From the NCBI RefSeq assembly GCF_035645195.1, contig NZ_DASQNA010000039.1, positions 186,001 through 250,000 on the forward strand: a stretch of 64,000 bases of DNA, written 5' to 3'. This DNA comes from Paenibacillus sp. (GTDB lineage Bacteria; Bacillota; Bacilli; Paenibacillales; YIM-B00363). The notes beneath the pieces are model-generated. The model saw only the letters and a list, made by a program, of their open reading frames with translations, made no database searches and was not told where the DNA came from. The translations under genes and the position numbers were made by a program. This document shows, piece after piece, positions 44,004-58,197 of this stretch; position 1 is the first letter of the stretch; every line of letters starts with the position of its first letter.

Positions 44004-44184
44004 GTCGTTTCGCAGGCGCGGCGGCCTTCGCGCAACGAAAAATATTTTCGATTTAGGATCTCCAAACAATGTTATAGAGGGCTTTTTTGTACATACTGTT
44101 GGATAGAGCTTTTTTTGTCAAAACCGAAGGCGGGGTTCAACTAGGGGCAAATTTACTCCTGACGCGCCGGCAGCTTCGAGGCAC

Positions 44185-44212
44185 TTGCAATCGTAAAAAT
44201 ATTGGCTATAAT
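44185..44212 (+). promoter_or_regulatory. sigma-A promoter of the ctsR operon
   Basis: TTGCAA (44185-44190) and TATAAT (44207-44212) are 16 bases apart, with the CtsR box starting 8 bases after the -10 element. The rest of the 43940-44296 gap shows nothing else apart from the terminator. Confidence 0.8.
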
Positions 44213-44220
44213 GTAATTAA

Positions 44221-44242
44221 AGTCAAAGAAAGTCAAAGTCAA
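44221..44242 (+). promoter_or_regulatory. CtsR operator (heptad direct repeat plus a third half-site)
   Basis: AGTCAAAGAAAGTCAAA matches the tandem heptad CtsR box (RGTCAAANANRGTCAAA); a further GTCAA follows. It covers the predicted transcription start, so CtsR binding represses the operon until heat or other protein stress. Confidence 0.92.
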
Positions 44243-44296
44243 CGCAAGGGAGAGCGCCGTGTTGACTTCGGCGCACTCGAAGATGGAGGCCACATC

Positions 44297-44758
44297 ATGC
44301 GGAATACGTCCGACATGATCGAACAATATTTGAAGCAGCTGCTGCAGGAAAGCCCCGACGGCATCATCGAGCTGCAGCGGAACGAGCTGGCCGAGCAGTT
44401 CCAGTGCGTGCCTTCGCAGATCAACTACGTCATCAGCACGCGCTTCACGCTCGACAAGGGCTACCTCGTCGAGAGCAAACGCGGCGGCGGCGGCTATATT
44501 CGCATCCAGAAGGTCGATCTTCCCGTGCACGAGGAAATTCACGTGCACGTGTCCCGAACGATCGGCGCGCAGATCGACCAGCAGGCCGCGGAAGGGTTAA
44601 TTTACCGGCTGGAAGAGGCGAAGCTGGTGTCGTGCCGGGAAGCGAATATGCTGCGGGCGGCGGTGCATCGGGATACGATCGCGCTGAAGCTGCCGCAGCG
44701 GGACGAAGCGCGGGCGCGGCTGCTGAAGGCGATGCTTGTGGCCCTTCTCACGAAGTAA
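44297..44758 (+). CDS. ctsR: heat-shock repressor CtsR
   Basis: 153 residues. Winged helix-turn-helix with FQCVPSQINYVISTRFTLDKGY and the glycine-rich wing RGGGGYIRI that both contacts DNA and senses heat; the Arg there is the McsB target in B. subtilis. The C-terminal dimer/ClpC-contact region is EEAKLVSCREANMLRAAV. ATG 44297 follows GGAGG. It autorepresses this operon and other class III heat-shock genes. Confidence 0.97.
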   Translation: MRNTSDMIEQYLKQLLQESPDGIIELQRNELAEQFQCVPSQINYVISTRFTLDKGYLVESKRGGGGYIRIQKVDLPVHEEIHVHVSRTIGAQIDQQAAEGLIYRLEEAKLVSCREANMLRAAVHRDTIALKLPQRDEARARLLKAMLVALLTK

Positions 44759-44789
44759 CCACCCTCGACCACGAAAGGGGACGACCGGA

Positions 44790-45305
44790 ATGCTCTGTCA
44801 AGAATGCGGGAAGCGTCCCGCTACGTTGCATTTTACGAAAATTGTGAACGGCGACAAGACGGAGTTTCATTTCTGCGAAACGTGCGCGCGGGAAAAAGGC
44901 GAACTCATCCCCGGCACGGCGGGCGGATTTTCGATCCATAACCTGCTCTCCGGCCTCATGGAGCTGGACCCGAGCGGCAAAGCCGGCGCGGCCCAGAAGG
45001 CGGCGCAGCCGCGATGCGATTTCTGCGGCATGACGTACGCGCAGTTCGGCAAAATCGGCCGCTTCGGCTGCGGGGAGTGCTATAAGCATTTCCAGGACCG
45101 CTTGACGCCGCTGCTCAAGCGAGTGCACGGCAATACGGTGCACGTCGGCAAAGTGCCGAAGCGGGTCGGCAAGCAGGTGCAGCTGCGCCGGCAGATCGAT
45201 CAGCTGAAGCGGGAGCTGGCGCAGAAGGTGGAGCAGGAGGAGTTCGAAGCGGCCGCGAAGCTGCGCGATCAAATCCGCGAGCTCGAGAAGCAGGCGGCCA
45301 ACTAG
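44790..45305 (+). CDS. mcsA: McsA, zinc-finger activator of McsB
   Basis: 171 residues. Four CxxC motifs (CQECG, CETC, CDFCG, CGEC) bind zinc, and the C-terminus is a UVR-type coiled-coil (EQEEFEAAAKLRDQIRELEK). It activates the McsB arginine kinase and senses thiol or metal stress. ATG 44790 follows AAAGGGG. It sits between ctsR and mcsB as in other Bacillales. Confidence 0.95.
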   Translation: MLCQECGKRPATLHFTKIVNGDKTEFHFCETCAREKGELIPGTAGGFSIHNLLSGLMELDPSGKAGAAQKAAQPRCDFCGMTYAQFGKIGRFGCGECYKHFQDRLTPLLKRVHGNTVHVGKVPKRVGKQVQLRRQIDQLKRELAQKVEQEEFEAAAKLRDQIRELEKQAAN

Positions 45306-45322
45306 CGGGAAGGAGCCACGGC

Positions 45323-46381
45323 ATGAGCAGATATACGGAACACGCGTTGAGCGGTTGGATGCAGGCGGACGGACCCGATTCGGATATCGTAATCTCCAGC
45401 CGCATTCGCATCGCTCGGAACGTCAGCAACGAACCGTTCCCGATGCTGGCGACGAACCAGCAGTCGGCCGAGGTGCTGAACCGGGTGTCGCAGGTGCTGA
45501 CCGGGGAGCGGCTGAACAACGTCGGGAGCTTTGATCTGCTGACGCTCACCGGGATGAACGAGCTCGAGAAGCGGGTGCTCGTCGAGAAGCATCTCATCTC
45601 GCCGAACCTCGCGAACGAGGCGCGCAACGGCGCCGTCATCCTGAGCGACAACGAAGCGATCAGCATCATGGTGAACGAGGAAGACCATTTGCGCATCCAA
45701 GTGCTGTACCCGGGCTTTCAACTGAAAGAAGCTTGGGAGGTCGCCGAGAAGATCGACGATATTTTCGAAGCGACGGTCGACTACGCGTACGACGAGAAAT
45801 ACGGCTACTTGACGAGCTGCCCGACGAACGTCGGCACCGGCATTCGCGCCTCGGTCATGATGCATCTCCCCGCGCTCGTCATGACGCAGCAGATGAACCG
45901 CATTTTGCAGGCGATCCAGCAGGTCGGTCTCGCGGTTCGGGGGCTGTACGGGGAAGGCAGCGAGGTCATGGGGAATATTTTTCAAATCTCCAACCAAATT
46001 ACGCTCGGGCAGACCGAAGAGGAAATCATCGACAATCTGCACGGCGTCGCGCGGCAAATCATCGAGCACGAGAAGGCGTCCCGCCAGAAGCTCATGAACG
46101 AATCGCGCGTGAAATTAACGGATCGAATCCGTCGCTCTTTTGGCATTTTGTGTTATGCTGAAGTTATCGATTCGAAGGAGGCGGCGCAGCGGTTATCCGA
46201 CGTACGCCTCGGGGTCGACCTCGGCATCATCGAGGGGCTCAAGCCGAACGTGATGAACGAGCTGCTCGTCATGACGCAGCCCGGGTACTTGCAGCAGCAT
46301 TACGGGCGGGCGCTCAGTCCCGAAGAGAGGGACTTGCACCGCGCGCGGCTGTTCCGGGAGCGGCTTGCGCATCGATCCTGA
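45323..46381 (+). CDS. mcsB: McsB protein-arginine kinase
   Basis: 352 residues, phosphagen-kinase fold. Nucleotide-binding residues lie in [30 protein letters not shown] and [22 protein letters not shown]. It phosphorylates arginines on CtsR and on damaged proteins, marking them for ClpCP. The C-terminal pArg-binding region includes [20 protein letters not shown] 45323 follows GGGAAGGAGCC, 17 bases after mcsA. Confidence 0.96.
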
Positions 46382-46427
46382 TCGAAACCATCCCTTGGAT
46401 TTTCATCCTTCTTGGAGGTGTATATTT

Positions 46428-48875
<2,448 letters not shown>

Positions 48876-49064: not shown

Positions 49065-49168
49065 GTTCTTTTGGAACAAAGGCAAAATCGTCGAAAGACG
49101 ATGACGCAAAGCCATGGGTCTTCCTCCCTGCCCGAGCAGGGAAAAGATCGCCAGGTTGCTCAAGGAAC
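49065..49168 (+). promoter_or_regulatory. cyclic-di-GMP-I (GEMM) riboswitch
   Basis: All core parts are present. The closing stem pairs GTTCTTTTG (49065-49073) with CAAGGAAC (49161-49168). GGCAAA is followed by a perfect ATCGTC-GAAA-GACGAT hairpin with the GAAA tetraloop (49087-49102), then the invariant GACGCAAAGCC (49103-49113). The second arm holds CCCTGC-CCGA-GCAGGG and a purine-rich receptor strand, then GCCAGGTTGC. It senses c-di-GMP and, with the terminator at 49198, should control the SLH and RHS genes. Whether ligand turns expression on or off is not clear from the sequence. Confidence 0.92.
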
Positions 49169-49197: not shown

Positions 49198-49240
49198 GCT
49201 CCTGAGCGCCTGACCATGGCCTCGGGAGCTTTTTATTTTT
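49198..49240 (+). terminator. riboswitch-associated intrinsic terminator
   Basis: GCTCCTGAG and CTCGGGAGC form a 9-bp stem with a 14-base loop, followed by TTTTTATTTTT. It lies 29 bases after the aptamer and 24 bases before the next start codon, as expected for an expression platform. Confidence 0.9.
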
Positions 49241-49264: not shown

Positions 49265-51319
49265 ATGGGTAGAAGGTTGTTGCCGAAGTTCGCACGAAGG
49301 TTCGCGATTGGCTTGTGTTTAACGGCAGTGTGTGGGGGCGCCGCTTTCGTCGCGTACGCGGACACTTCGTTCGCGGTTACGGACGAGCCGGTCGCGAGCA
49401 AGGCGGGGGAAGGCACGTACATCTCGGGCGAGCACATGGTGTGGTACGAGGAGGACGGAAAGGGACGCCAAAATATTTTCTATCGGAATTTATCCACCGG
49501 GGTGGAGAAACAAGTTACAAACTACCCGTCCATGAAGGATTTGCCGCGCGTGACGGTCACCTCGTCGGGCGAGGTCGTCGTCGTATGGATCGACAAGAAG
49601 TATCTGGGTTCCGGTTCGGGGATGTGGGATGTGCTCGCGTATTATATGAATTCGCAAGAGGAAGTAAAGTTGTCTTCGGTCATTGCGCCGCACGTCGGCC
49701 TCAGCGTGTCGGGGGATCATGTCGCATGGTATCAGACGTGGAAGGGCGAGATGTACGCTTACGATTTATCGGCAAGGAAGGAAACGCCGCTCGGTCTTGG
49801 TACCAAGCCTACGGTCGTGAACGGAAATATCGCTTTTATTACCGGCGACGGAGATATCGCCTTGCATCACTTGATAACCGGGGAAACGAAGAGTTTAGTA
49901 GATCTTCCATATCACTTGTATCCTGCCGAGTTGACTTATAACGGAAAGCAGGTGCTATGGAAGGAAAGCGATCTCGACAACCGCACCAAGTATGTCCTCC
50001 TGGATCCAAGCGATGCGGGCGCCGCGCCGGTCGACTTGACGACAAAGTCGAAAAAGGAAGTGGAGTACCCGAATCTGTACCTCGGCGACGGACATGCGGC
50101 TTGGGTGGAGTGGAATGCCGGAACGCCCCGACTAACGGGCGTCGATCTGACGGCGAAACAAACCTATGAAGTTGCGCGCGGGGATCATGTCATTCATACG
50201 GTGTCTTTCGCGGGAGACCGTCTGATTATGAAGGCGGCCGATGGGCGGCTGGTGGCGCGTTCGCTGGAAATGTCGGCACCCGCTCCTGCCGAGAGGACCG
50301 AAGGCGAGAGCAGGGACCGCGATTCGCTGTCCGCGACAACGGAACGGAAGGCGGAGGCGTCGCCGGTGCGGGCGGGACCGATGGGGGCTGTGCTTACGTC
50401 GAAGGACGGAACGGCCCGGCTGGTTATTCCGGCCGGTGCTCTGGAATCGGAGGTCGAGGCTCGCTTCGAAATGGATGCCGTTATACAAGCGCCGAACGAA
50501 GCGAAGACCGAGCTCGGGGTGAAACGCGGGGCGACCCTCGCGTGGCGTGTCGATTTGGACGGGCGAACGCTGCCGAAGGACAAGCCTGCGGAGTTGGCGC
50601 TCAAGTTCGACGGGCTGCGCTGGTCGGAGGAAGAGCGGGAAAAGATGTCGATTTATAGATGGGAAGCGGAGGCCAAAGAGTGGAAGCGGATCGGCGGAAC
50701 GGCGGATGCCGAAACATTCGAAATTCGAGCATCGCTCACGAGGTCCGGCACATACGCGGCATTCGTCTACGACGTCGCCTTCTCCGATACGGTCGGACAC
50801 TGGGCGGAACGTCCCGTCGAAATATTGGCTGCGTTAGAAATCGTGAACGGTATGGAAGCGACTCGGTTCGCGCCGGACGCGACGCTGACGCGAGCGCAGT
50901 TTACGAAAATGCTGCTTGGCGCAATGGGCATTGAGCCGGAGACGGACGGGGGCCAGTCGTTCACCGACGTCGCCGCCTCGCACTGGGCGGCTCCTTGGGT
51001 CAATGCCGCCGCTCGCGCCGGAATCGTGCAAGGGTCGAACGGCACATTTGATCCGGAAAGCGCCTTGACGCGGGAGCAGATGGTGGCGATGCTCGTGCGG
51101 GCGCTGGAACGGCAGCGGCCGATATCGGAGCGCGAATCGCATTTGCCTTTCGACGACGCGTCGGCGATCAGCGACTGGGCGAGAACTTCCGCTGCGACGG
51201 CTGCAGCGCTCGGGTTGATCCAAGGCAGGGACGGCAAGTTCTTGCCGCATGCGTCGTCTACCCGCGCCGAGGCGGCGACGGTCATGTACCGCCTGCTCCG
51301 GGTGGCGGGCGACTTGTAG
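49265..51319 (+). CDS. SLH-domain surface protein with beta-propeller-like region
   Basis: 684 residues. Signal peptide to about residue 32 (FAIGLCLTAVCGGAAFVAYA); residues about 45-345 carry repeating beta strands of the TolB/YncE kind (SGEHMVWYEEDGKGRQNIFY, SGDHVAWYQTWKGEMYAYDL); residues about 370-500 look like a ZU5-like beta module (LVIPAGALE, TRSGTYAAFVYD); three SLH repeats follow (SDTVGHWAERPVEIL, TDVAASHWAAPWVN, ISDWARTSAATAAAL). It should be anchored to cell-wall polymer. ATG 49265 follows GGGGAGAGAGGAAG. It is the first gene after the c-di-GMP riboswitch and is 15 bases before the RHS gene, so both probably form one operon. Confidence 0.9.
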   Translation: MGRRLLPKFARRFAIGLCLTAVCGGAAFVAYADTSFAVTDEPVASKAGEGTYISGEHMVWYEEDGKGRQNIFYRNLSTGVEKQVTNYPSMKDLPRVTVTSSGEVVVVWIDKKYLGSGSGMWDVLAYYMNSQEEVKLSSVIAPHVGLSVSGDHVAWYQTWKGEMYAYDLSARKETPLGLGTKPTVVNGNIAFITGDGDIALHHLITGETKSLVDLPYHLYPAELTYNGKQVLWKESDLDNRTKYVLLDPSDAGAAPVDLTTKSKKEVEYPNLYLGDGHAAWVEWNAGTPRLTGVDLTAKQTYEVARGDHVIHTVSFAGDRLIMKAADGRLVARSLEMSAPAPAERTEGESRDRDSLSATTERKAEASPVRAGPMGAVLTSKDGTARLVIPAGALESEVEARFEMDAVIQAPNEAKTELGVKRGATLAWRVDLDGRTLPKDKPAELALKFDGLRWSEEEREKMSIYRWEAEAKEWKRIGGTADAETFEIRASLTRSGTYAAFVYDVAFSDTVGHWAERPVEILAALEIVNGMEATRFAPDATLTRAQFTKMLLGAMGIEPETDGGQSFTDVAASHWAAPWVNAAARAGIVQGSNGTFDPESALTREQMVAMLVRALERQRPISERESHLPFDDASAISDWARTSAATAAALGLIQGRDGKFLPHASSTRAEAATVMYRLLRVAGDL

Positions 51320-51334: not shown

Positions 51335-54300
51335 ATGAGGACATTCTTTGCCATGCATCGAACGGGCCGCCTCATGTGGCGCCAAGCGATCAGTATTTTG
51401 CTCATTGCGTCGCTCGTACTTCCCGGCGTGCCGATCTTCCCCGGGTTGGGGCCCGGCAAAGCGCTGGCGGCAACGACGGTCGGCGTAGCGCCGGCGAAGC
51501 TGGTTACCGTTTATGGCGGGAACGCCAACATTACGTGGAACTACGGCGTCAAACCGCACACATCGTCGATCGAGGCATGCGAAGTAGAAGAAATCCCTCC
51601 GGAACAACGGGGAGAGCCGTACGAGGACGAAGAGGGCAATATGGTATACCCTCCGACGCATACGATGGTGTCGCGCGGTTCCGTCGGGTCGAAAGCACCC
51701 GGGTTCCCCGGCGAGACGGAGTTGTTCGTATGGAACGGCAACGTCGACGGGAAGCCCTTGCTGGACGGAAGCTATACCGTATGCGTTGTGCCGAGCGGAG
51801 CGCCGGAATATTTCGGCTTCACCGAGGTAAGCGTGGATAACCCGAAGCCTCCGGCGCCGGCCTTCGTGCACGTCGTGCCGAGCCTTGACGCGAACGGCAG
51901 CGGGGTGCACAGGATCCGCGGCATAGCGGAGCATGGGACGAAAGTGACGGTTCGCATCGATTACATGATGCGGGACGGATACGAACAGGTGCCGAGTCCA
52001 GGACCGTCGCCCACATACACGGTGGAAATTCCATACGGCAAAATGCCGGACGACAAACATTTACAATGGGCGCTCAAGCCGGAATGGCGCGACGAGCCCG
52101 TGTCGATCGACAACTATTTCACGAACTTTCCGCTCCGCGACGACAATCGTCCGGAGCAGTATATCCGAGAATGGGAAATCGCCGTCCCGCTCAGATCTTA
52201 CGAGACCGCCTCGATTACGGCGACGGCGGAACGGGCTGCGACGAACCCTTTCTTTCATCCGCAGCAACCCGATAAAAACATATCCGGCGTTTCTATTCCC
52301 GTGAAGGTGCTGCGGTACGTTGCCCCGGCTTGGGACGTGAACTGGGAGGCGCTGGCAGGATACTACTACAAAGCGGAAAACGTGCCTGCGATGATCGCGG
52401 GCGCGGAGCGGATCGCGACCGATAACGGCATCGAGGTCAACGTATGCACCGGAGATCAGCGCTGCGCGGGGCCGATCGACAAAGGTTGGAATTTGATTAT
52501 TCAAGATCCGGCATTGGCGGGCAACATCACGGAAGAAGATTTAGAGGATTTGACATACGAAAAAATTGCGAATCGGGCCGATTACCCAAAACCGCTTTTC
52601 TGGGACCCAATTAATTTGGCGACCGGGGACTTTATTTTTTCCCATACTAACTTATCTCTTGCGGCGATCATGCCGCTGGAGTGGAAACTGACGTACCACA
52701 GCCGAGACAAGTATGATGGAGCGGTCGGCGTCGGCTGGCATCATTCCTTCGAATGGCGGATCGTGCGGCAAGGCGCGAACGCGATGACGGTATTGACTCC
52801 CGATGGGGCTAACTTTGTGTATGAAAGAACAAGCAGCGGCGAGTACCGAACGCCGGCAGGCACCTACAATACGCTGAAACAGCTAACCGACGGCACGTAT
52901 GAAATGAAGACGCCGCAGCTGTGGACGTACGCATTCCGGGAGGACGGCGCACTGTATCGCATCACGGACAACAACGGCAACGTCGCAAACTTGTCGTACG
53001 AAGGCTCCGTGCTAAAGCGGGTCGATACGGTCGGGGCGAGCCTGTCATTCGCATACGGAAGCGCAGGTAAGATCGCGTCGGTCACCGACCACGCGGGGCG
53101 CACGGTGTCGTACGAGTATGATGCGCTGACGCACGATTTGCTTGCGATGAAGCTGCCCGACGGCGCAACGATCCGCTATACCTACGACAGTTTGCATCAG
53201 ATGACGAGTATTACGAACCCGAACGAGAGCGGCACGCTGGTCAACGAATACGATGCGAACGGCCGCGTGGTGTATCAGAAGGACTTCTCGGGCGGGGAAG
53301 CGCGCATGACGTATTTGCCGGAAGAGGGCAAGACGGAAGCCTTCGACCCGCTAGGGCGAAAGAAGGTTTACGAGTTCGACGATCGCTTTCGTCAGACTGC
53401 CGTCCATTATCCCGATGGCACCGTAGAGCGGTTCGAGTACGATGCGAACGACAATTTGATCGCGAAGACGGATCGCAACGGCAACGCCTGGACGTTCGGA
53501 TACGACGCGTTCGGCAATTTGACGTATGCCGCAGATCCCCTGGGCCATGCCACGACGCTGCAGTATAACGCTTGGAGCCAACCGACGGAAATCGTCGATG
53601 CGCTCGGGAACAGAACCGCTTTGGGCTATGACGAGCGAGGAAACCTTGTGTCGATAACGGATCCGCTCGGCCGCGTCTCGACGATCGAACGGGACGCGCG
53701 AGGTCTTCCGGTCGCGATGATTAACGGCGAAGGCGAACGAACGGAAATGACCAACGACGACGAAGGATTCGTTCGTTTCGTGAAGGATCCGGAAGGCTAT
53801 ACCCGGGAATTCATCCGCGATGCGTTCCACCGCGTGACGGCAGTCGTTGATCCGCTCGGAAGTCGAGACGAGGTCGTGTATGATCCGCGGGATCGGGTCG
53901 TTGAGCGAATCAATGCGCTAGGCTACAAGGATATGTTCGGTTACGATAAGAACAGTAATTTGACAACGGTCGTCAACCGCGAACAGGAAGGCTACGGGTA
54001 TCGGTACGACGCGTTCGACCGGCTCGTGTCGGTAACCGATCCGTACGGCAATGTCACGACGTACGAGTACGATGCGGCAGGCAATCGGACCAAGATTGTC
54101 GAGCCGAACGGCGCGGTGACGGAATTCATCTACGACAACGCCGATCGGGTGGATTGGCTGCGCGACGCGGAAGGCAACGTGACGGATTACGAGTACGACG
54201 GCAACGGCAATGTAACCGCGATCATCGATCCGCGTCAAGGACGTACCGAGATTGCCTATGATGCTCGCAATCTGCCGGTGAAGGTTACCGACCCGGAGGG

Positions 54301-57300
54301 CGGCGTCACCGAGTTCGGATATGACTCTCTCGGGCGGTTGATCAGCGAGAAGGATCATTACGGCGGCGTGACTTCCTATTCCTACGATGCAGCCGGCCAA
54401 TTAACGAAGCTGACCGACGCGCTCGAACAGACGACCGAATACGGCTACGACAAGGCGGGACGCTTGACGAGCGTGAAGCGTCCGACCGGCGCCGTATGGA
54501 CGATGGAATACGACGACCGCGGCTTGCTCGTCGCGACTGTCGATCCGCTCGGACATCGGGCGACGATGGAACGCGACGCGCTCGGCCGCGTTACCGTCGC
54601 ACGCGATGAAAGCGGCGCGGCAACATCTTACACGTACGATGCGGCGGGGCGCGTGACATCGATAATTGATGCCCTGGGCGCGATGACGGAGTTCAGTTAC
54701 GACGCAATGGACCAGATTACGTCGGTGAAAGACGCGAAGGGCGGCGTAACCCAATATCGATACGACGCGCTCGGTCGCTTAACGGCGGTCGTCAACGCGA
54801 AGGGCGATGCGACGCTGTATACCTACGATGCCGCGGGCAACTTGAAAACCAAGACGGACGCCGAAGGACGAGCTACCGTATATGAGTATGATCTACTCAG
54901 CCGGCTGAAATCCCAAATCGATCCGCTCGGCAAAGTCACGTCGTTGCTGTACGACGGCATGGGCAACGTCACGTCGGTGACGCATCCGGATGCAACGACG
55001 ACAAGGTACAGCTACGACCTCGCCAACCGGCTGACCGGCATTGCGTATCCGGACGGGGAAACCGTATCGTATGCGTACGATAAGGTCGGTCGCAGAACGT
55101 CGATGGCCGATGCGTCGGGAACGACGACATATACGTATGACGCGTTGTCCCGATTGACGGGCGTGACGGACGGACGCGGACAGACGATTCAGTACGGCTG
55201 GACGCCGAACGGCCAACGCGCGAGCATGACGTATCCGGACGGCAGCGTCGTTACGTACGAGGTCGACCTGCTTGATCGGATTGTAGGGGTCGTCGACACG
55301 CAAGGACGCCGCACCTCGTATACCTACGACGCGCGCGGGCTGCTGACAACGAAGTCGCTGCCTTCCGGCGCCGTAACCGCCTACGCTTACGATGCGCTGG
55401 GACAACTGCTGGAACTGACGCATCGGAATCAATACGGCCAGGCCGTCGAGCGATTGATTTACGAGTATGATCCGGTCGGCAACCGGACGAAGATGGAGCG
55501 GATCGAGGATTCGGACGATGAAGACGATGCCGGATCCACCCGCGTCGTGTCCGAATACGCGTACGATGCGCTGAATCAGCTCACCGCTGTGAATAAGTAC
55601 AATGATGGCGCCCCCGGGTCGCTCATCGCGACGTCGTATACGTACGATAAAGTCGGCAATCGATTGTCCAAATCGACGGCGTGGGGCGATCTGTTCGACC
55701 TGGAGGAATACGTGTATAACGCGGGCGATCAGCTCGTCCGTTGGCAAAACGGTCCCGACTATAAAGAATATACGTATGACTTGCGCGGCAATCTGCTGCA
55801 GACCGTCGGTGTTGTCGGGCAGACCGTACCGACATGGTCCGTGACGGCTTCCGTTTACGGGGATGCGGTCGTGACGAACGTATACGGGGAGCCCGACCCG
55901 TTCGCCTCCTTGTCTTCCCTTGAGGCGGCTGTGCCGGAAGTGCTTGACCAGTATGTGTGGAACGGGGCGAATCGCCTCGTGAAACATACGAACGAGCGCG
56001 GCGATATTTCCCGCTACGGGTACGATGGCGACGGCAACCGCGTGTCGATGATACTGGATTTGAACCACGGTCCGAATGGCAACGGGAATGGACCTGGCAA
56101 CGGCAACGGTAACGGTAACGGCAATGGCAATGGCAATGGCAACGGTAATGGGAACGAAACCGGAAAGAGCGACAAGTGCGGCCGCGTCGTGCCGCCGGGC
56201 TTTGTCCCGCCGGGGCTTTCGAAAAAATGCGATCCGGTCGACGGCGAATACCCGACGGAACATCCTTTCGGACCGCGCGACGGCTGGGAAATGCAGTATA
56301 AGAAAAAGCATTGGGAGTTCCACTATACGAACGATGTCAGCCTAGCGCTTCCGGAACCGATCCAAATTACCGAGGCCGATCCGGCCAAATGGAAGGAAAC
56401 GTTCGTGTACGGCGCCGGCGGAGAACGTGTGTCATACACCTACCTCCCTGCGTACGACGCGACCAATGGTTGGGAACCGACTCCGGGATCCGGAGGAGCC
56501 GAACCAGGGGTTACGCCAAAGACGCTGTGGTATTTGTCCGATGCGCTCGGCAGCGCGATCGGTTTGATCGAGCAAGACGGCCGCGTATCGGCACGGTACC
56601 ATTACGATGAGTTCGGCATCCCGCTCGACGCGAAGAAGTTCGACGCGAACTGGCCTGGACCGGATAATCTGTTCGGATACACAGGATTGGGTTACGATTT
56701 CCACAGCGGACTGACCTACGCGCGCGCTCGGTATTATCAGCCGGAAATCGCGCGATTCATAAGCGAGGATTTGTATAAGGGGGATATGTGGAATCCGCAA
56801 AGTCAGAACCCTTATGCGTACGTGGAGAATAACCCGCTGATCTATACAGACCCAAGCGGACTGACTAGAAGCGGTGACATTGCAAGAGCAAACATAGAGT
56901 ATGCGAGAAAGGTCGGCAGCGGCAGCGAAGCGTTTTGGGCGATAAGGTCCAAACTCGGTACTGAAGCGAGACAGTTTTTCCCCGAAGCCGAGAACGATGC
57001 CAATAATACGTTCAAATGGCTATTCAGCCTAGCGACGAAAACGAATGGGAACCCGGACTACAACACCGACGGGAACGCAGCATGGGCTACGGAAAAACTT
57101 GTGGCGATATTCCAAGGGCAGTATGAATTGGAACAAGAAGCTGTTCCGGGCATGCTTGTTGAAGCGGCGGTAGACTTGGTTGGAAGCAGATTTAAACTAA
57201 CACGAAATGTCCATCTGAAAAAGCCGATACAGCTCCACCATTATGTAACCAATAAAAGTAAAAAGTTCACCGCACAAATGGAAAAGATAGTAACAAAATA

Positions 57301-57520
57301 CGGATTAAAGCTTGATGAAAAGTGGAATAAAGAGTATCTCCCTCATCAGGGCAGACATCCCGATGCATACCATCAATATATTTTAGACAATCTACAAAGA
57401 TTTGATGAGGTTGCCGCAGGGGACAAGGACGTCTTTTTGCAACTATTCGAAGGGTTAAAAGGAGAAATTAGAAGCAATCCAGAAATGATGTATAAGGCTT
57501 ACTGGGAAGCTAAGAAGTAA
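51335..57520 (+). CDS. RHS-repeat polymorphic toxin with C-terminal AHH-type nuclease-like domain
   Basis: 2061 residues. Signal peptide at about 1-45, a unique N-terminal region to about 420, a DUF6531-like start (FWDPINLATGDFIFSHTNL), then about 1100 residues of YD/RHS repeats (YDAxGR units) forming a beta-cage. A Gly-Asn repeat lies at about 1580-1608, and the RHS core ends at RARYYQPEIARFISED and NPLIYTDPSG (about 1840). The last 215 residues are unrelated: an LHH motif near 1967 and HQGRHPDAYHQY near 2005-2015 fit the AHH branch of HNH-like nucleases. ATG 51335 follows AAGGGGTG. The tip and the next gene are visibly richer in A+T than the core. It probably delivers a nuclease-like tip to neighbours. 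Confidence 0.92.
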   Translation: MRTFFAMHRTGRLMWRQAISILLIASLVLPGVPIFPGLGPGKALAATTVGVAPAKLVTVYGGNANITWNYGVKPHTSSIEACEVEEIPPEQRGEPYEDEEGNMVYPPTHTMVSRGSVGSKAPGFPGETELFVWNGNVDGKPLLDGSYTVCVVPSGAPEYFGFTEVSVDNPKPPAPAFVHVVPSLDANGSGVHRIRGIAEHGTKVTVRIDYMMRDGYEQVPSPGPSPTYTVEIPYGKMPDDKHLQWALKPEWRDEPVSIDNYFTNFPLRDDNRPEQYIREWEIAVPLRSYETASITATAERAATNPFFHPQQPDKNISGVSIPVKVLRYVAPAWDVNWEALAGYYYKAENVPAMIAGAERIATDNGIEVNVCTGDQRCAGPIDKGWNLIIQDPALAGNITEEDLEDLTYEKIANRADYPKPLFWDPINLATGDFIFSHTNLSLAAIMPLEWKLTYHSRDKYDGAVGVGWHHSFEWRIVRQGANAMTVLTPDGANFVYERTSSGEYRTPAGTYNTLKQLTDGTYEMKTPQLWTYAFREDGALYRITDNNGNVANLSYEGSVLKRVDTVGASLSFAYGSAGKIASVTDHAGRTVSYEYDALTHDLLAMKLPDGATIRYTYDSLHQMTSITNPNESGTLVNEYDANGRVVYQKDFSGGEARMTYLPEEGKTEAFDPLGRKKVYEFDDRFRQTAVHYPDGTVERFEYDANDNLIAKTDRNGNAWTFGYDAFGNLTYAADPLGHATTLQYNAWSQPTEIVDALGNRTALGYDERGNLVSITDPLGRVSTIERDARGLPVAMINGEGERTEMTNDDEGFVRFVKDPEGYTREFIRDAFHRVTAVVDPLGSRDEVVYDPRDRVVERINALGYKDMFGYDKNSNLTTVVNREQEGYGYRYDAFDRLVSVTDPYGNVTTYEYDAAGNRTKIVEPNGAVTEFIYDNADRVDWLRDAEGNVTDYEYDGNGNVTAIIDPRQGRTEIAYDARNLPVKVTDPEGGVTEFGYDSLGRLISEKDHYGGVTSYSYDAAGQLTKLTDALEQTTEYGYDKAGRLTSVKRPTGAVWTMEYDDRGLLVATVDPLGHRATMERDALGRVTVARDESGAATSYTYDAAGRVTSIIDALGAMTEFSYDAMDQITSVKDAKGGVTQYRYDALGRLTAVVNAKGDATLYTYDAAGNLKTKTDAEGRATVYEYDLLSRLKSQIDPLGKVTSLLYDGMGNVTSVTHPDATTTRYSYDLANRLTGIAYPDGETVSYAYDKVGRRTSMADASGTTTYTYDALSRLTGVTDGRGQTIQYGWTPNGQRASMTYPDGSVVTYEVDLLDRIVGVVDTQGRRTSYTYDARGLLTTKSLPSGAVTAYAYDALGQLLELTHRNQYGQAVERLIYEYDPVGNRTKMERIEDSDDEDDAGSTRVVSEYAYDALNQLTAVNKYNDGAPGSLIATSYTYDKVGNRLSKSTAWGDLFDLEEYVYNAGDQLVRWQNGPDYKEYTYDLRGNLLQTVGVVGQTVPTWSVTASVYGDAVVTNVYGEPDPFASLSSLEAAVPEVLDQYVWNGANRLVKHTNERGDISRYGYDGDGNRVSMILDLNHGPNGNGNGPGNGNGNGNGNGNGNGNGNGNETGKSDKCGRVVPPGFVPPGLSKKCDPVDGEYPTEHPFGPRDGWEMQYKKKHWEFHYTNDVSLALPEPIQITEADPAKWKETFVYGAGGERVSYTYLPAYDATNGWEPTPGSGGAEPGVTPKTLWYLSDALGSAIGLIEQDGRVSARYHYDEFGIPLDAKKFDANWPGPDNLFGYTGLGYDFHSGLTYARARYYQPEIARFISEDLYKGDMWNPQSQNPYAYVENNPLIYTDPSGLTRSGDIARANIEYARKVGSGSEAFWAIRSKLGTEARQFFPEAENDANNTFKWLFSLATKTNGNPDYNTDGNAAWATEKLVAIFQGQYELEQEAVPGMLVEAAVDLVGSRFKLTRNVHLKKPIQLHHYVTNKSKKFTAQMEKIVTKYGLKLDEKWNKEYLPHQGRHPDAYHQYILDNLQRFDEVAAGDKDVFLQLFEGLKGEIRSNPEMMYKAYWEAKK
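56077..56157 (+). repeat. GGCAAY-type hexamer repeats encoding a Gly-Asn tract
   Basis: About thirteen units related to GGCAACGGTAAC run through this stretch, encoding alternating Gly and Asn in the RHS protein just before the final core segment. Third-position variation suggests age or selection for the protein rather than very recent slippage. Confidence 0.85.
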
Positions 57521-57577
57521 TAGTATGAACGTGCCGCTTTACTGCAGAGGAACCGAATCTTCGTGGGAGGCTGAAGG

Positions 57578-58141
57578 GTGAAGTATTATAAATTAATGAC
57601 GGACTTTTCATCGAACGAGGATGTCGTTTGTACCATTGCCGATTTACAAGGCATTCAAAAGTTTGACGTGCTTAAAGGGAAGCCCGCGGTTCATTGGAAC
57701 GAGAATGTGACCTTTGAGTACAATGCAGCGGATGGGTCGGTATTGACGGATTACCTCGCCAACGATATGGGATGGTTTCTCGTTTCCGAGGCATTTAAGA
57801 CGGCCATCCAACAGACGGCTGAAGGACAGGTCGAATTTTTGCCCGTAAAACTTGTGGAAACTCAGACCCGGCAAACCGTGATCTATTATGTCGTTAATGT
57901 AACGAAAGTAGTAGATGCGCTGGACTTGGACCATTCTGATCATACCTTCTTCGAAGCCAATAATATCAGAGTGTTGTCTGTGAAAAAGTATACGCTGCTT
58001 GAGGGAGCCATCGGGGATGCGAACATATTCAAATTATTAGGAGATGAAATTCCGGTCTTCGTATCCGAATCGGTCAGGAACAGAATAGAAGAATCCAAAT
58101 TAACGGGATGCAAGTTTTTGGAAGTGGGAATCCACAGATAG
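57578..58141 (+). CDS. Imm11-type (DUF1629) immunity protein
   Basis: 187 residues, soluble, no signal peptide. The layout matches the Imm11/DUF1629 family: N-terminal YYKLMTDFSSNEDVVC, HWNENVTFEYN, VLTDYLANDMGWFLVSE, FLPVKLVE and VVDALDLDHS. Members neutralise polymorphic toxins encoded just upstream. The GTG start at 57578 has GGGAGG 7 bases before it. It is 57 bases after the RHS toxin stop and shares the lower GC of the toxin tip, which supports a cognate pair that moved together. Followed by a strong terminator. Confidence 0.82.
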   Translation: MKYYKLMTDFSSNEDVVCTIADLQGIQKFDVLKGKPAVHWNENVTFEYNAADGSVLTDYLANDMGWFLVSEAFKTAIQQTAEGQVEFLPVKLVETQTRQTVIYYVVNVTKVVDALDLDHSDHTFFEANNIRVLSVKKYTLLEGAIGDANIFKLLGDEIPVFVSESVRNRIEESKLTGCKFLEVGIHR

Positions 58142-58159
58142 CTTTCGTCAGTAGTAATG

Positions 58160-58197
58160 ACCGCAATGCGAGTAACTTACGCATTGCGGTTTTTCTT
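58160..58197 (+). terminator. intrinsic terminator of the RHS/immunity unit
   Basis: CCGCAATGCG and CGCATTGCGG form a perfect 10-bp stem with a 9-base loop, extended by an A-T pair and followed by TTTTTCTTT. Confidence 0.92.

What the first reader, a model, noticed from the sequence alone, without database searches (positions are those of the whole stretch)
56860..58141. Composition break marks an exchangeable toxin tip plus immunity cassette
After the conserved TDPSG end of the RHS core the DNA turns visibly more A+T-rich, and this continues through the immunity gene up to the terminator. This is the pattern expected when RHS tips and immunity genes are swapped by recombination at the conserved core end.
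Basis: partly seen in the sequence, partly recalled or inferred. Interest (0 to 1): 0.55.

Follow-up and report, generated by a model that had tools for sequence, protein, structure and literature searches.

The report
Swappable toxin tip behind riboswitch
A Paenibacillus-type bacterium carries a large secreted toxin whose DNA-cutting tip and matching antidote gene have been swapped in as a unit, as in its relatives, and the whole operon sits behind an RNA switch predicted to sense the signal molecule cyclic di-GMP.

Summary
The RHS core ends in TDPSG at 56860; GC falls from 0.583 (core) to 0.444 (tip) and 0.442 (immunity gene). In 36 of 36 related loci the tip is more A+T-rich than the core. 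The last 40 core residues average 69% pairwise identity and the first 40 tip residues 8%. DNA similarity to the window stops at 56835-56863 in 45 of 53 comparisons. Main and displaced core ends within one genome are mostly 85-99% identical just before DPxG, a ready substrate for recombination.

Two refinements. (1) The tip is itself mosaic: a helical linker shared by Paenibacillales tips with unlike toxins, then an AHH nuclease that travels with its Imm11 gene into other protein families and onto Campylobacter plasmids. A second GC step near 57190 marks that joint. (2) The operon (SLH beta-propeller protein, then RHS) follows a c-di-GMP-I riboswitch (49072-49164); so do 24 of 32 such operons, window included. 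My paper searches found no report of this coupling.

Tip exchange is a known phenomenon. The conserved riboswitch and SLH partner make this a variant not found described. Toxicity, immunity and the switch's direction are inferred.

The parts
49072..49164 (+). c-di-GMP-I (GGC variant) riboswitch aptamer, leader of the SLH-RHS operon
   Evidence: Rfam RF03167, 68.0 bits against gathering score 59, E 9.6e-14; same place in 24 of 32 such operons, window included
49198..49240 (+). hairpin plus T-tract between aptamer and start codon (terminator-like expression platform)
   Evidence: read from sequence; folds as a hairpin
49265..51319 (+). SLH-domain beta-propeller surface protein, first gene of the operon
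   Evidence: Pfam SLH 1.1e-33; AlphaFold2 mean pLDDT 81.9; Foldseek: TolB and other propellers, and SLH structure 3pyw at TMt 0.87, rmsd 2.4
51335..57520 (+). RHS/YD-repeat protein, 2061 aa, secretion-signal-like N-terminus (read by eye), DUF6531, RHS core, toxin tip
   Evidence: Pfam RHS_repeat 27 stretches, DUF6531, AHH; NCBIfam YD_repeat_2x and Rhs_assc_core
56603..56863 (+). Rhs_assc_core end with the two aspartates of the autoprotease motif (SED... and TDPSG); exchange junction at 56860/56861
   Evidence: TIGR03696 residues 1757-1843; both Asp invariant in 13 aligned core ends; loss of DNA similarity at 56835-56863 in 45 of 53 comparisons
56861..57139 (+). helical linker (pre-toxin) module, tip residues 1-93
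   Evidence: pLDDT 93-98 over most blocks; shared with Paenibacillales tips that end in other toxins
57140..57229 (+). low-confidence spacer holding the second GC step (57190)
   Evidence: pLDDT below 50 at residues 95-123; GC change point 57190, range 57088-57251
57221..57517 (+). AHH-type HNH/EndoVII nuclease module, toxin proper
   Evidence: Pfam AHH PF14412 6.5e-14; 51-63% identical modules elsewhere with Imm11 beside them
57578..58141 (+). Imm11 (DUF1629) immunity gene
   Evidence: Pfam PF07791 1.7e-30; closest solved structure 6a4c, MXAN_0049
58159..58191 (+). intrinsic terminator closing the cassette
   Evidence: 12-bp stem followed by T-tract, z-score -5.9, 0 of 200 shuffles as stable

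Best explanation
This is a Gram-positive, Sec-type RHS polymorphic toxin operon whose tip and immunity gene are an exchangeable cassette. Shown from sequence: the core is conserved; the tip and next gene differ from genome to genome with the junction right at the DPxG end of the core; displaced core ends lie downstream in many relatives and closely match the active core; this tip is an AHH nuclease with an adjacent Imm11 gene, and that pair recurs in unrelated carriers. Inferred: incoming core-end/tip/immunity units recombine with the active gene through the conserved core end and push the old tip downstream; the core folds as a shell, cuts itself at DPxG and releases the tip; the linker helps the nuclease enter a neighbour; the nuclease cuts DNA; Imm11 protects kin; the SLH propeller protein helps display the toxin; a c-di-GMP riboswitch sets when the operon is expressed, whichever tip it carries.
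For: Junction. Displaced core ends, mostly 85-99% identical within a genome. Tips closer to each other than their cores are: G001/G355 tips 73% against core ends 60%. Families. Nuclease-immunity pair in other carriers: G273, G530, G569 and 32 Campylobacter plasmids. Linker shared with unlike toxins. Riboswitch. SLH partner. Autoprotease motif matches published cleaved Rhs proteins (PMC8636562, PMC7170923 passages).
Against: No experiment on this protein. No displaced tip lies in this genome, and no same-species genome was available, so this particular swap is inferred from other species. A GC drop of similar size exists inside another ORF of the window. The nuclease part of the model has low confidence. 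The Asp-Asp spacing of the cleavage motif is 27 residues against 22 in TseI. Eight of 32 SLH-RHS loci lack the riboswitch.
Confidence: 0.92

Rival explanations
1. The composition shift reflects codon or amino-acid bias of a small, fast-evolving nuclease and its inhibitor, not exchange.
For: Tips are A+T-rich in every relative, whatever the core's GC (correlation 0.30), so low GC is typical of these domains; similar drops occur elsewhere in the window.
Against: Relatives have unrelated, not merely diverged, sequences after DPxG (8% identity against 69% before it); related tips sit on different cores.
Confidence: 0.05
2. The nuclease-Imm11 pair alone was swapped, behind a linker that stayed with the core, so the junction is near 57200 and not at 56861.
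For: Linker is shared by other Paenibacillales tips; a second GC step lies at 57190; the pair occurs behind other linkers; G359, G237 and G317 carry paralogous tips with the same linker and different or truncated ends.
Against: The linker is absent from the G001 ortholog and from most relatives, where similarity stops at DPxG; linker GC is already below core GC.
Confidence: 0.3
3. The riboswitch upstream is coincidental, or controls only the SLH gene.
For: The genome has 10 RF03167 copies over cut-off; 8 of 32 SLH-RHS loci lack it; the RHS gene starts 15 bp after the SLH gene, but co-transcription is not shown.
Against: Same strand and place in 24 of 32 loci; aptamer end 34-55 nt before a start codon in 19 of the 24; changes on both sides at 5 of 16 pairs; kept even at two collapsed loci.
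Confidence: 0.12

Closest known systems
Rhs C-terminal displacement and orphan Rhs-CT/immunity modules (PMC3150448, passages read; Jackson 2009 seen only in its reference list)
   Same: Sharp junction at the DPxG motif, variable tip plus immunity gene, displaced core-end/tip units downstream in relatives
   Different: Described in the passages read for Enterobacteriaceae and other Gram-negatives; here Paenibacillales, and this genome has no orphan
WapA/Rhs of Gram-positive bacteria (Streptococcus suis, PMC12704120, passages read)
   Same: Signal-peptide-type Rhs protein without PAAR domain, polymorphic tip, orphans
   Different: There the neighbours are srtB and secF-like genes; here an SLH beta-propeller gene and a c-di-GMP riboswitch; the terms SLH, riboswitch and c-di-GMP occur nowhere in that paper's main text
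MXAN_0050/MXAN_0049 of Myxococcus xanthus (PMC12077131, passages read)
   Same: AHH nuclease toxin paired with an adjacent immunity protein homologous to the window's Imm11 (6a4c, E 2.8e-6)
   Different: Different carrier and bacterial phylum; activity of the window pair untested
TseI and Rhs1 self-cleaving T6SS Rhs effectors (PMC7170923, PMC8636562, passages read)
   Same: Two-aspartate motif just before the released toxin; RHS core homologous to solved Rhs shells (8qja, 7q97, 8cp6)
   Different: T6SS-delivered with other N-terminal regions; motif spacing 22 against 27
c-di-GMP-I riboswitch (RF03167, RF01051)
   Same: Sequence and pairing at or above Rfam gathering score
   Different: Target is an SLH-RHS toxin operon; target genes of other switches in this genome look like chemotaxis, GGDEF/PAS and PilZ-type genes (read by eye)

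Membership tests
RHS/YD-repeat polymorphic toxin | YD repeats and Rhs-associated core ending in DPxG | tested here: met
   RHS_repeat 27 stretches, TIGR03696 E 2.8e-16
RHS/YD-repeat polymorphic toxin | variable C-terminal tip beyond the motif among relatives | tested here: met
   36 genomes, 69% against 8% identity
RHS/YD-repeat polymorphic toxin | autoproteolytic release of the tip | not testable with these tools
   only the two aspartates are seen, invariant in 13 core ends
AHH nuclease (PF14412) | match over the curated cut-off | tested here: met
   52.3 bits against 22.3
AHH nuclease (PF14412) | DNase activity | not testable with these tools
   no assay
Imm11 immunity protein (PF07791) | match over the curated cut-off, directly behind a toxin tip | tested here: met
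   106.2 bits against 22.1; starts 57 bp after the RHS stop
Imm11 immunity protein (PF07791) | neutralises its cognate toxin | not testable with these tools
   no assay
T6SS Rhs effector | PAAR or other T6SS-type N-terminal domain | tested here: not met
   no such Pfam domain in the 2061-aa protein up to E 1; N-terminus looks like a secretion signal (by eye)
c-di-GMP-I riboswitch | aptamer over Rfam gathering score with conserved pairing | tested here: met
   68.0 bits; 5 of 16 pairs with changes on both sides in 24 sequences
c-di-GMP-I riboswitch | binds c-di-GMP and changes expression | not testable with these tools
   direction also unresolved: window and G001 have a terminator, most others an aptamer near the start codon

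The most novel reading that the evidence does not exclude
In Paenibacillus and close relatives the delivery half of an RHS toxin system (c-di-GMP riboswitch, SLH beta-propeller surface protein, RHS core) is a conserved chassis, while tip and immunity gene are plug-in units. Because the switch lies upstream of the chassis, any newly acquired toxin at once comes under the cell's motile/sessile second messenger, tying contact-dependent killing to the biofilm or swarming decision.
Probability: 0.6. Interest if true: 0.65.

Novelty: new variant of a known kind. Interest (0 to 1): 0.5.

Why it matters
It gives direct comparative evidence, in one bacterial order, for how RHS tips are exchanged: near-identical displaced core ends sit beside the active gene, and cassettes can join at two places. 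It also points to a testable and apparently unreported link between c-di-GMP signalling and contact-dependent competition in Gram-positive soil bacteria.

Tried and rejected
Phages: no match to the tip. PADLOC: no match to tip, immunity or SLH protein. Solved structures by sequence for the tip: nothing significant. Fold search for the tip: no Foldseek match at E 0.001 or better; the linker resembles only generic helical bundles (best Z 5.7, rmsd 3.9 over 87 residues, below the level at which helical bundles mean anything). Direction of the riboswitch: a possible antiterminator pairing seen by eye in the window was not evident in G001; dropped as undecided. A simple promoter/terminator scan missed the real terminator because its loop has 9 bases. 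In one search the automatic start-codon rule failed or was ambiguous for 5 of 24 loci (window, G001, G313, G099, G069), so those were left out of the 19.

Rows dropped: of 39 genomes with the core end, G101 was not fetched (hit at a contig end); G225 and G294 had no complete DPxG end and were left out of the 36. In one search I tested 21 loci, chosen mostly because one search had shown extra core ends; two of the 21 (window, G145) had none by that test. Below 85% there were some short pieces (76-84%). In one search, 53 of 56 other core ends gave a DNA match to the window; 7 stopped before 56835 and one ran to 56874. For the count I copied those 53 end positions by hand. In some searches the linker alignment used 18 of the tips, leaving out short or incomplete ones.

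Full report
What is there. The window holds an RHS protein gene (51335-57520, 2061 aa). Its core ends in TDPSG at 56860. Behind it come a 219-aa tip, a 57-bp gap, a 187-aa gene (57578-58141) and a strong terminator (stem 58159-58191). Pfam names the tip an AHH nuclease (E 6.5e-14) and the gene Imm11 (E 1.7e-30). GC falls from 0.583 in the core to 0.444 and 0.442. The drop is real, but by itself not extraordinary: the best 450-bp drop inside the RHS gene (0.116) just leads 26 long ORFs of the window, the next being 0.113.

The junction. A search of 392 genomes of the order found the core end in 39. I studied 38 of them, window and G001 included. Its RHS protein is 62% identical to the window's, 88% in the last 170 core residues, and DNA similarity stops at 56861; its tip is lipase-like and its next gene is a different, membrane-type protein by eye. 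Over 36 genomes with a complete DPxG end, the last 40 core residues average 0.69 pairwise identity and the first 40 tip residues 0.08 (630 pairs; for the 14 closest 0.75 and 0.08, 91 pairs). DNA alignments of the window with 53 other core ends stop at 56835-56863 in 45, earlier in 7 and later in 1. Tips are lower in GC than cores in 36 of 36 (mean drop 0.15), with tip GC nearly constant (sd 0.026) whatever the core. So low GC marks the pool of tips and does not date a swap.

How exchange can happen. In 19 of 21 loci tested (chosen mostly for having extra core ends) core-end pieces lie downstream of the active gene. Most are 85-99% identical to it, typically over 200-1500 bp and often ending 0-38 bp before DPxG, for example three copies at 97.7% in G290; some shorter pieces are 76-84%. 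Between the window and other species the core ends are about 65-82% identical in DNA. Such copies are what recombination at the core end would leave behind and could use again. The window's own genome has one core end only. Tips also pass between cores: those of G001 and G355 are 73% identical although their core ends are 60%.

A second joint inside the tip. AlphaFold2 gives a confident helical domain at residues 1-93, a disordered-looking spacer at 95-123 and a less certain nuclease. The helical linker recurs in other Paenibacillales tips that end in different toxins (31 of 392 genomes match some part of the tip, almost all of them mainly its linker). The nuclease does the opposite: it is found with an adjacent Imm11 gene in G273 (63% and 45%), at the end of another RHS protein in G569 (about 51-56%, Imm11 39%), at the end of a non-RHS toxin-like protein in G530 (57%, Imm11 32%), and on 32 Campylobacter plasmids (best 52%, and 33.7% for Imm11; rows only, not fetched). 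GC changes a second time at 57190 (45 of 2000 codon shuffles as good). The exchangeable unit therefore has two possible left edges, 56861 and about 57200.

Mechanism. Published Rhs proteins cut themselves just behind a two-aspartate motif and release the toxin (PMC8636562 and PMC7170923, passages). Both aspartates are invariant in 13 aligned core ends here, though their spacing is 27 residues, not 22. The exchange junction thus coincides with the predicted cleavage site: what is swapped is what is released. AHH nuclease MXAN_0050 with its immunity protein MXAN_0049 is a studied pair in Myxococcus (PMC12077131, passages), and MXAN_0049 is the closest solved relative of the window's Imm11. Toxicity and immunity of the window pair are inferred.

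Outside the coordinates. A c-di-GMP-I riboswitch (RF03167, 68.0 bits) lies at 49072-49164, before an SLH-domain beta-propeller gene (49265-51319) that precedes the RHS gene by 15 bp. Of the 38 loci, 32 have the SLH gene upstream, and 24 of these 32, window included, have the riboswitch at or above Rfam's threshold. The eight without are G145, G012 and six of genus g23; a model built from the 24 found none in them either. Three further named loci (L125, L126, L144) have both, and two collapsed loci (L132, L140) keep the riboswitch. In 19 of 24 a start codon with a ribosome-binding-like site lies 34-55 nt after the aptamer; window and G001 have about 95-100 nt and a terminator instead. Five of 16 pairs show changes on both sides. 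The genome has 10 such switches over cut-off, and the genes behind others look, by eye, like chemotaxis and c-di-GMP genes. The direction of control is not known.

Known or new. Tip exchange at DPxG with displaced modules is known (PMC3150448, passages), also in Gram-positive WapA proteins (PMC12704120, passages). I found no paper on a c-di-GMP riboswitch or an SLH partner of an RHS toxin in searches (listings; open-licence PMC papers only); subscription journals could hold one. Hence 'new variant of a known kind', interest 0.5: the exchange itself is ordinary, the conserved chassis under a second messenger is not.

Noticed in passing
window 49072-49164: c-di-GMP-I-GGC riboswitch directly before the SLH-RHS operon, conserved in most relatives that have the operon.
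   Followed up: yes
L010:2346-2440 (-), G001: A further c-di-GMP-I riboswitch lies just upstream of a gene that looks like radA (recognised from memory), downstream of the displaced RHS pieces.
   Followed up: no
window 44087-48875: The operon lies directly behind what looks like ctsR-mcsA-mcsB-clpC (recognised from memory); in G001 radA- and disA-like genes follow the RHS array, so the island may sit between clpC and radA.
   Followed up: partly
L066:16633-18550; L010:8430-8613; L132:17875-18018: Group II intron pieces lie within or beside three RHS loci.
   Followed up: no
L140 and L132: Collapsed loci: riboswitch and an RHS core end are kept while most of the SLH and RHS genes between them is gone.
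   Followed up: partly
G359 (L062), G237 (L057), G317 (L067): Tandem core ends share the same linker but differ in, or have lost, the toxin end: exchange at the inner joint.
   Followed up: partly
L040, L041, L042 tips: Several relatives carry a pretoxin HINT domain (PF07591) in the tip.
   Followed up: no
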